Origin: Chiridota heheva
Taxonomy: Eukaryota; Echinodermata; Holothuroidea; Apodida; Chiridotidae
DNA length: 64,000 nucleotides
Reading direction: 5' to 3'
Assembly: GCA_020152595.1 (NCBI GenBank)
Contig: JAIGNY010004486.1
Coordinates: 527,001-591,000, forward strand
In this document: positions 57,601-60,600 of the stretch, piece after piece
Layout: every line of letters starts with the position of its first letter
Numbering within the stretch: position 1 is the first letter of the stretch
The notes under the pieces: generated by a model
What the model was told of the DNA's origin: nothing
Databases searched by the model: none
Seen by the model: the letters and a program-made list of their open reading frames with translations, nothing else
Program-made: the position numbers and the translations under genes

Positions 57601-60600
57601 ATGGGAGGGGGGTCTAGGAGGTCACCTTGGGTTATCACTGGAACCCAGCACTCAAACTTGTCTAGCTAGAACCCTGCACAATGCCACGAATTCCATAGTG
57701 CTGTAACTTCTTTAATAATATCTTGTGGTTAATTGTGTCAAAAGCTTTCTTAAGATCAATAAATACACCAACAGACATCTTCCTATTGTCTAGCGAAGTT
57801 GTGATTTCCTCTAGTAATTCTAATGTAGCCATTGAAGTGGATCTACCTGATCTAAAACCATATTGGCCTTTTCTCAGTATATGGTGTTTGTCAATCAAAT
57901 TGTCTAATCCATTATCAAAAAGTTTTTCTAGAATTTTAGAAAATTGTGGCAAAAGAGAAACTGGCCTAGTCCCTAGATCCCTTGTGTTTATCACAGTTCA
58001 ACAGATTTACATTGAAATCACCACATAAGTAAACATCTGACTTCTTATGTCTATACATCCTTTCTATTACATAAATGGTGATCTGTATATTACTATCAGG
58101 TTGCCTATAGAGGCAGCTGATGACAACTGTTTTCTTGTGCGGTAATGATAACTCCACTGAGAAACATTCAAGAACATTTTCTACCACATTAGTTAAATTA
58201 TCTAAAACCCTAAACTTAATATCCTTATTGATGTATGTGGCTACACCGCCACCTTTTTTATAAATGCGGTCTTGGTGACAGATTTCATAACCTGGTAGCT
58301 GAAACAAATCAGAATTGTCACATAAATCAAACCAAATTTTACTTTTTGTTATTATATCAAATTTAAACCCCAAATCTGTTAGCACAGAGGCTTCTGCAAT
58401 TAAAATTTATACCAGATAGACCTTGCTCATCTTGCACTACATTATGATACCAGATAAACCTTGCTCATCTTGCACTACATTATGATACCAGATAGACCTT
58501 GCTCATCTTGCACTACATTATGATAACAGATAGACCTTGCTCATCTTGCACTACATTATGATAACAGATAGACCTTGCTCATCTTGCACTACATTATGTT
58601 AACAGATAGACCTTGCTCATCTTGCACTACATTATGATAACAGATAGACCTTGCTCATCTTGCACTACATTATGATACCAGATAGACCTTGCTCATCTTG
58701 CACTACATTATGATAACAGATAGACCTTGCTCATCTTGCACAACATTATGATAACAGATAGACCTTGCTCATCTTCGCTACATTATGATACCAGATAGAC
58801 CTTGTTTATCTTGCACTACATTATGATAACAGATAGACCTTGCTCATCTTGCACTACATTATGATAACAGATAGACCTTGCTCATCTTGCACCACATCAT
58901 AACAACAGATAGACCTTGCTCATCTTGCACTACATTATGATAAGAGATAGATTTTGCTCATCTTGCACTACACTATGATAAGAGATAGACCTTGCTCATC
59001 TTGCACTACATTATGATAACAGATAGACCTTGCTCATCTTGCACTACATTATGATAACAGATAGACCTTGCTCATCTTGCACTACATTATAATAACAGAT
59101 AGACCTTGCTCATCTTGCACTACATTATGATACCAGATAGACCTTGCTAATCTTGCACTACATTATGATAGCAGATAGACCTTACTCATCTTGCACTACA
59201 TTATGATAACAGATAAACCTTGCTCATCTTGCACAACATTATGATACCAGATAGACCTTGCTCATCTTGCACTACATTATGATAACAGGTAGACCTTGCT
59301 CATCTTGCACTACATTATGATAACAGATAGACCTTGCTCATCTTGCACCACATTATGATAACAGATAGACCTTGCTCATCTTGCACTACATTATGATAAC
59401 AGATAGACCTTGCTCATCTTGCACTACATTATGATAACAGATAGACCTTGCTCATCTTGCACCACATTATGATAACAGATAGACCTTGCTCATCTTGCAC
59501 TACATTATTATGATAATCAGATACCAGATAGACCTTGCTCATCTTGCACTATATTATGATAACAGATAGACCTTGCTCATCTTGCACTACATTTGATAAC
59601 AGAATTGCTCATCTTGTACATTATGGAAATACTTGCAGTTTATGTTATAACTGCTATAAAAATTATTATCTGGGTCAATGTCATCCTCAAAATCAAAATT
59701 GTGGTGATCATCATAATTAAATATTTCAAAGTTAAAAGCAGAACACTCATTGTATAATTCAACTAGATCTACACTCATATCAATACCAGAATTCAAAAAA
59801 AGAATTCGTCATCATTTAAGCTGTTAATTGGAAATACTTCTACACAATTTTTACAAAACCAATTAGTGCTATCTCTACCAAGGACTTTACCTTGGTTCTT
59901 TGATAGTCCAGCACACTTATGGTGGACCCATAACAAACAAAGCGAGCATTCTATAGCATCATTCAATACATTATTATAACATATACTACATTAGAAAAAG
60001 TCTGTAGGACCCATTAATCATTATATATTGTCTTATAATCATAATGCACCATAACAGAAATAATATTGATTTCCAAAATTTCAATAAAAATGGCATGGAT
60101 ACTTTTACATATGGAAATACAGTTTTTCAAAATCAGACTCACTTTTGATAAGATATATTCTAGCTACCTATTGTGTGCCCATAGTTCTTATGAACACTTT
60201 ACAATCCCTTGTCCATGTTGATGAGATTTTTCATTGTTTTCTTTAAGTTCTGGCTGTTCCAGCCAAGTCACCATTTTGTTTGGTAAGGTGTTCGTTTATA
60301 AATACGTTGGTCCCCTTTAACTTCTTTGCTCTTTTCAAAACGTTTACCTTCTCTTTTCTGTTCACAAATCTTATAATGATATTCTCTGGTTTACCAGACA
60401 TATTGTTTTACAAGGTATAGCAGGCACTGACATCTGTTGGTTTGATGTCTGTTTCTAGCTTGGTATTCAGGTAGTCAAGCACCTGCTTCTCCAGGGTATC
60501 CAATTCTTCCTGAGGGGCATTTTCTCCTGCGGTGTCTACATCATGTGGGGATGTACTTCATGCCCAGGACTGATGTTTAGTCTTCTAACCAGTTATCAAA

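What the first reader, a model, noticed from the sequence alone, without database searches (positions are those of the whole stretch)
58404..59620. A satellite born from a LINE reading frame
The 38-bp unit, read on the minus strand, encodes [12 protein letters not shown]. The LINE ORF2 on the 5' side of the array ends ...[11 protein letters not shown], and on the 3' side it resumes [16 protein letters not shown] and then the endonuclease. So about 31 copies were amplified in place from 38 coding bases, wrecking the frame because 38 is not a multiple of 3. Origin, position and direction are all readable in one locus.
Basis: partly seen in the sequence, partly recalled or inferred. Interest (0 to 1): 0.8.

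Follow-up and report, generated by a model that had tools for sequence, protein, structure and literature searches.

The report
Minisatellite born inside a LINE gene
A 38-base piece of a jumping gene's coding sequence, usually present once per copy, was repeated about thirty times at one spot; tandem repeats are known to arise this way, and here the steps can be read unusually clearly.

Summary
Window 58409-59623 holds about 31 head-to-tail copies of 38 bp inside ORF2 of a minus-strand LINE that resumes on both sides. Of 28 other copies of this LINE found, 24 carry the 38 bp once, 1 (C867) twice, and 3 lack it. A whole-genome pattern search found the head-to-tail junction at two loci only: this array (28 places) and C867 (1 place). 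So it is a single-locus minisatellite amplified from LINE coding sequence, not a dispersed satellite.

The first duplication may therefore predate this insertion, with the expansion happening here. Another copy of the LINE has its own in-frame 51-bp x7 array. Four of five arrays tested in this window, this one included, sit inside dispersed repeats whose other scored copies carry one unit. TE-born minisatellites are well known: a new member of a known kind.

The parts
58409..59623 (-). 38-bp tandem array, about 31 units (32 counting a degenerate first unit at 59596-59623); unit in LINE sense CATAATGTAGTGCAAGATGAGCAAGGTCTATCTGTTAT
   Evidence: TRF; decomposition; whole-genome junction search
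58409..58446 (-). EN-side terminal unit, continuous with the LINE endonuclease region; more than 20 other places match through this unit and stop
   Evidence: query ends 246-248 = window 58445-58447
59624..60246 (-). LINE sequence 5' of the array (ORF2 N-terminal region)
   Evidence: 88-94% identical to the same segment (59604-60246) of the copies that have it (segment A)
60585..60872 (-). ORF1-like open frame near the LINE 5' end (95 aa; no Pfam family over its cut-off)
   Evidence: LINE similarity extends at least to 61199, the end of the query
57969..58408 (-). LINE ORF2 endonuclease region resuming after the array
   Evidence: segment B, 89-94% to other copies; homologous frame of L017 hits Exo_endo_phos at 28.8 bits, cut-off 24.5; the window's own piece alone has no Pfam hit
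57677..57968 (-). reverse transcriptase fragment after an internal deletion of about 1.07 kb
   Evidence: RVT_1 54.9 bits, cut-off 29.6 (frame 57662-57997); gap against L009 2855-3929
56727..57676 (.). 950-bp insertion in the RT region with inverted ends (CAGGGTTCTAGCTA...) and a short target duplication; DNA-transposon-like
55654..56726 (-). rest of the RT and LINE 3' region
   Evidence: RVT_1 29.7 bits, cut-off 29.6, on 56486-56731; segment C

Best explanation
A 38-bp stretch of LINE ORF2, just before the endonuclease, was tandemly duplicated once by an event with no contiguous direct repeat at the breakpoints, probably in the element that gave rise to both this copy and the one at C867. After insertion here the two units, now long enough to mispair, were expanded to about 31 by unequal exchange or replication slippage and partly homogenised. 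At C867 the pair stayed at two. Shown: the array lies within the LINE, most other copies have one unit, one copy has two with the same junction, and the junction was found at no other locus. Inferred: the shared origin of the duplication (about 0.6 on its own), the order of events and the repair or slippage mechanism. No function of the array is indicated; I take it as a by-product of repair and replication. The confidence given is for the in-place origin from LINE coding sequence, not for the shared founder.
For: Unit once in 24 of 28 other copies, twice in 1, absent in 3 (alignments). Junction at only two loci in 1.1 Gb, 28+1 places, reversed-pattern control 0. A more distant relative shows one copy's worth of sequence at the site (L059). 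C867 and the array share the exact junction TTAT|CATAATG; C867's second unit has the C at position 13 found in 31 of 32 array units (the other has a gap there), where 15 of 17 other copies aligned have A. Breakpoints share 0 bp of contiguous direct repeat in 12 of 12 single copies checked, so an identical junction by chance seems unlikely. Window and C867 are each other's best partner by shared derived sites over segments A+B+C: 12 sites in 2007 columns, 6.0 per kb, median 1.9 over 398 pairs. C867's two units differ at 3 of 38 sites, in line with a duplication about as old as the insertion (its tip branch 0.035-0.051). Array units deviate by 0.029 per site (30 of 32 units counted) against a LINE tip branch of 0.042-0.048, which fits later expansion or homogenisation.
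Against: The tree is star-like: window plus C867 alone has support 0.136 (A+B+C); with C730 included 0.832 (A+B); unresolved in B+C. Only 2 of the 12 shared derived sites are exclusive to the pair, several other pairs share more per kb, and in segments A and B taken alone C867 is not the window's best partner (in B not among its eight best). C3263, close in two of the three trees, has one unit. The C at position 13 also occurs in two one-unit copies, L012 and L014. A 38-bp duplication frameshifts ORF2, so a two-unit source would have needed proteins in trans. Around the breakpoints there is imperfect similarity at offsets 37 (6-9 of 16 bases) and 39 (5-8 of 16, with a CAT repeat) though only 2-4 of 16 at 38, so a slipped birth followed by loss or gain of a base is not excluded.
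Confidence: 0.9

Rival explanations
1. Rival to one step only: the duplications at this locus and at C867 were independent, at a site prone to break or slip; nothing was inherited.
For: Low tree support and few exclusive shared sites. The site region is indel-prone: small deletions in L012, L016, L018, L022, L024 and L027, an insertion inside the unit in C853, unit absent in C922, C730 and C1271. Imperfect similarity at offsets 37 and 39.
Against: Identical junction with no contiguous direct repeat at offset 38 to guide it, the same base at position 13 of the unit, and an old duplication at C867.
Confidence: 0.3
2. The whole array formed in one step during reverse transcription at insertion, by repeated template jumping over 38 bases of RNA.
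For: One human study suggests TE tandem repetition can be triggered during retrotransposition (PMC3389668, abstract and passages seen). C867 shows a duplication of about insertion age.
Against: Array units deviate less (0.029 per site) than the LINE tip branch (0.042-0.048), so most units are younger than the insertion or homogenised; the outermost 5' unit is the most degenerate.
Confidence: 0.1
3. A pre-existing satellite was captured by, or inserted into, the LINE.
For: None beyond the presence of an array inside a LINE.
Against: The unit is part of ORF2 in 25 of 28 other copies, and no junction was found without LINE flanks.
Confidence: 0.01
4. Assembly artefact.
For: Only one assembly was available and no reads.
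Against: Units differ by point changes scattered along the array, and the C867 copy and the separate C3263 array are independent loci.
Confidence: 0.03

Closest known systems
TE-derived minisatellites of the human genome (Ahmed and Liang 2012, PMC3389668; abstract and passages seen)
   Same: Tandem units cut from a TE body and expanded locally; initiation mostly without flanking direct repeats (they could explain 6% by known mechanisms)
   Different: Here the single-copy progenitor site, a two-unit copy and the full array are all present in one genome for one element; I did not check whether that study has such series
Mouse Ms6-hm and Hm-2 minisatellites inside MaLR LTRs (Kelly 1994, seen only as cited in PMC6947457 and PMC9659126)
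   Same: Minisatellites grown inside dispersed retroelements
   Different: LTR, not LINE coding sequence
LINE ORF2-related satellites: PROsat of Phodopus, Pvc20 of seal, HinfI/CR1 of chicken (passages and table of PMC9659126)
   Same: Tandem repeats related to LINE ORF2 sequence
   Different: Listed there as satellite DNAs of their species; here one 1.2-kb locus
Haber-Louis model of minisatellite birth (seen as described in PMC6947457 and PMC3389668)
   Same: First a duplication, then expansion by slippage or unequal exchange
   Different: The model needs flanking direct repeats (5-10 bp as described in PMC6947457); none at this junction at the observed offset

Membership tests
TE-derived minisatellite | unit is part of a TE and occurs once in other copies | tested here: met
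   24 of 28 once, 1 twice, 3 none
TE-derived minisatellite | array flanked on both sides by the same TE in register | tested here: met
TE-derived minisatellite | unit 10-100 bp, head to tail | tested here: met
   38 bp
Satellite DNA | long arrays, many loci | tested here: not met
   about 1.2 kb at one locus; junction elsewhere only once
Haber-Louis slippage-born minisatellite | 5-10 bp direct repeats flanking the motif at the breakpoints | tested here: not met
   0 bp contiguous in 12 of 12 single copies checked at offset 38; imperfect similarity at offsets 37 and 39 remains
Non-LTR retrotransposon (LINE) | reverse transcriptase domain | tested here: met
   RVT_1 54.9 and 29.7 bits, cut-off 29.6
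Non-LTR retrotransposon (LINE) | APE-type endonuclease domain | tested here: met
   Exo_endo_phos 28.8 bits (cut-off 24.5) in paralogue L017; the window's own EN piece gives no hit, L012 and L020 are below cut-off
Non-LTR retrotransposon (LINE) | clade, 3' tail and target-site duplication | not tested
   3' ends were printed but no clade or TSD analysis was made

The most novel reading that the evidence does not exclude
The seed of a minisatellite can be mobile: a two-unit duplication arose in, or during copying of, a LINE, was carried by retrotransposition to at least two loci (here and C867), and then expanded only at one. In this genome such TE-seeded births would be the usual source of minisatellites (4 of 5 arrays tested here), sometimes starting without a guiding direct repeat.
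Probability: 0.45. Interest if true: 0.5.

Novelty: new member of a known kind. Interest (0 to 1): 0.36.

Why it matters
How TE-born minisatellites start was an open question in a genome-wide human study, which could explain only 6% of cases by known initiation mechanisms (PMC3389668, 2012; abstract and passages). Here the progenitor site, a two-unit copy and a 31-unit array of the same 38 bp coexist, and three other arrays in the window have dispersed single-unit progenitors. This genome would let the first duplication junctions be read directly and in number.

Tried and rejected
Gradient of growth inside the array: no significant sharing of variants between neighbours at any lag from 1 to 15 (lowest p 0.078 at lag 12), so direction of growth is not readable. 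The 21-bp array next to the LINE copy at C3635 (L014) was considered a further LINE-born array and rejected: LINE similarity stops about where that array begins. The 50-bp array at 20279-22023 was tested as TE-born and did not fit: most matches of a dispersed repeat end about 90 bp before it. Naming the organism through COX1 failed: no match in the assembly. LINE clade not determined. Local gene conversion between window and C867: identity is even across segments (93.0, 94.3, 93.2%), so no sign of a recent tract. Rows left out of the count of 28 copies: C3249 (68%), C1771 and C2935 (70-72%) as more distant relatives, and C2781 (a 93-base query match that does not reach the site).

Literature: five searches of the held library (one search found none). 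Papers seen: passages of PMC9659126 and PMC6947457, abstract and passages of PMC3389668; the others only as listings. I make no claim that this type of case is absent from print.

Full report
WHAT IS THERE. Window 58409-59623 is a tandem array of 38 bp, 31.2 copies at 93% matches by TRF, 32 units counting a degenerate first unit by my decomposition. It lies inside a minus-strand LINE. On the minus strand the sequence before it reads [11 protein letters not shown] and the sequence after it [20 protein letters not shown] followed by endonuclease sequence. Two RT fragments of the window hit RVT_1 over its cut-off; of the paralogue endonuclease frames tried, L017 hits Exo_endo_phos over its cut-off, L012 and L020 below it, and the window's own piece not at all.

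The window's assembly (1.1 Gb, 3744 contigs, organism not named) could be searched. Two DNA searches brought in 28 other copies of this LINE. Of these, 24 have one match to the 38-bp unit (15 over all 38 bases, 9 over 26-34 bases because of changes or small gaps), one (C867, L009/L029) has two, and three (C922, C730, C1271) have none. Alignments show LINE sequence continuous on both sides of the single unit, typically CAATTC|unit|ACATTTTAATTG. In one search more than 20 places match the query up to the end of one unit (positions 246-248) and stop. These searches score only the best candidates, so the copy count is a lower bound. Four more distant or shorter matches were left out of the 28 (C3249, C1771, C2935, C2781). 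One of these relatives (C1771, L059) also shows one copy's worth of sequence at the site.

IS THE REPEAT ELSEWHERE? A pattern of 30 bases across the head-to-tail junction, three mismatches allowed, finds 29 places in the genome: 28 in this array and one in the C867 copy; the reversed control finds none. So no LINE-free array of this unit was found in this assembly, within the reach of that pattern.

HOW IT BEGAN. The junction TTAT|CATAATG is the same in C867 and in the array. In 12 of 12 clean single copies checked, the two breakpoints share 0 bp of contiguous direct repeat at offset 38. Similarity near the breakpoints is 2-4 of 16 bases at offset 38 but 6-9 of 16 at offset 37 and 5-8 of 16 at offset 39, where a CAT repeat lies. 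The observed junction therefore does not fit the simple form of slippage between 5-10 bp flanking repeats (as described in PMC6947457), though a slipped birth with a base lost or gained is not excluded. With no repeat to steer it, arriving at the same junction twice is unlikely, so the duplication was probably shared by descent. In agreement, window and C867 are each other's best partners by shared derived sites over the three segments (12 sites in 2007 columns, 6.0 per kb against a median of 1.9 over 398 pairs), C867's two units differ at 3 of 38 positions, and C867's second unit shares the C at position 13 with the array (31 of 32 units; the other has a gap there), where 15 of 17 other aligned copies have A. 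Against it: the tree is star-like, support for the pair alone is 0.136 and for the pair with C730 0.832, only two of the 12 shared sites are exclusive, several other pairs share more per kb, segments A and B taken alone do not favour the pair, C3263 nearby in two of three trees has one unit, and two one-unit copies (L012, L014) also have the C. I give the shared founder about 0.6 on its own.

HOW IT GREW. The 30 units counted (units 1 and 2 left out) deviate from the consensus at 33 of 1140 sites (0.029); the LINE tip branch is 0.042-0.048. Some deviations are shared variants, so the number of mutations is smaller still. Most units are therefore younger than the insertion or homogenised. The outermost 5' unit is the most degenerate. 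No significant neighbour clustering was found. Unequal exchange or slippage after insertion is the simplest reading; it is inferred. The copy was also broken in other ways: an internal deletion of about 1.07 kb against L009, a 950-bp insertion with inverted ends, and short deletions beside the array; their order relative to the array is unknown.

THE SAME THING ELSEWHERE. Another copy of this LINE (C3263, L020 2584-2941) has its own array, 51 bp x7, in the endonuclease; 51 is a multiple of three and a 259-aa frame stays open through it. Its breakpoints share 0 bp in the two single copies that could be read, of five looked at. I then tested four other arrays in this window by the same signature, left flank plus one unit; each search scored 40 candidates of 124 to 2466 found at first look. 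The 74-bp array at 29818 lies in a dispersed repeat: 38 of 38 other places, apart from the array-bearing C3380, end at query 315-330, one unit being 251-324, and by eye the repeat resumes at the array's far end. C3380 has a separate array of about 72 bp built from the same repeat, with what looks by eye like an inverted piece of it. The 29-bp array at 39948 lies in another dispersed repeat: 39 of 39 other places end at query 267-280, one unit being 249-277, and matches run from the unit into the far side in six of six loci aligned, in two of them for only about 25-30 bp. The 34-bp array at 8486 lies in a third: 28 of 40 other rows reach query 268-294, one unit being 251-284, and none goes further; the other 12 stop before or match a different repeat in the flank. 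Its far side gives only weak matches, in 3 of 6 loci fetched (L077, L078, L079; E about 1e-5 to 1e-4). The 50-bp array at 20279 does not fit: none of the 40 other rows reaches it. So four of five arrays, the finding included, are TE-born by this test; the other arrays of the window were not tested. By eye, the 74-bp and 34-bp births have imperfect short direct repeats at their ends, the 29-bp one at most 2 bp; no statistic was computed.

COMPARISON. TE-born minisatellites and LINE-ORF2-related satellites are in print (PMC9659126 and PMC6947457, passages; PMC3389668, abstract and passages: 23% of human minisatellites and satellites TE-derived, 6% of those explained by known initiation mechanisms). 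This is a new member of that kind. Its merit is that progenitor, two-unit copy and array are all present in one genome.

Noticed in passing
window 29818-34549: The 74-bp x64 array lies inside a dispersed repeat whose other scored copies carry about one unit; C3380 holds a separately built array of about 72 bp from the same repeat.
   Followed up: yes
window 39948-40556: A 29-bp x21 array with 100% matches by TRF lies inside another dispersed repeat with 1137 first-look candidates; such identity suggests a very recent expansion.
   Followed up: yes
window 8486-10683: The 34-bp x66 array lies inside a third dispersed repeat; the far side is only weakly matched.
   Followed up: partly
window 20279-22023: The 50-bp array starts about 90 bp after the usual end of a common dispersed repeat but is not part of it in the rows scored.
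   Followed up: partly
L020 2584-2941 (C3263): In-frame 51-bp x7 array in the LINE endonuclease, leaving a 259-aa open frame.
   Followed up: partly
window 56727-57676: 950-bp insertion in the LINE RT with inverted ends beginning CAGGGTTCTAGCTA and a duplicated target of about 8-10 bp, resembling a non-autonomous hAT-like element (superfamily name recalled, not tested).
   Followed up: partly
L053 (C853) and L057 (C1540): In two LINE copies similarity breaks off inside or near the end of the 38-bp unit; in C853 it resumes about 4.2 kb further on.
   Followed up: no
L014 3920-6001 in LINE sense (C3635): A 21-bp x99 array abuts this LINE copy about where LINE similarity stops; its unit was not seen in the other LINE copies compared.
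   Followed up: partly
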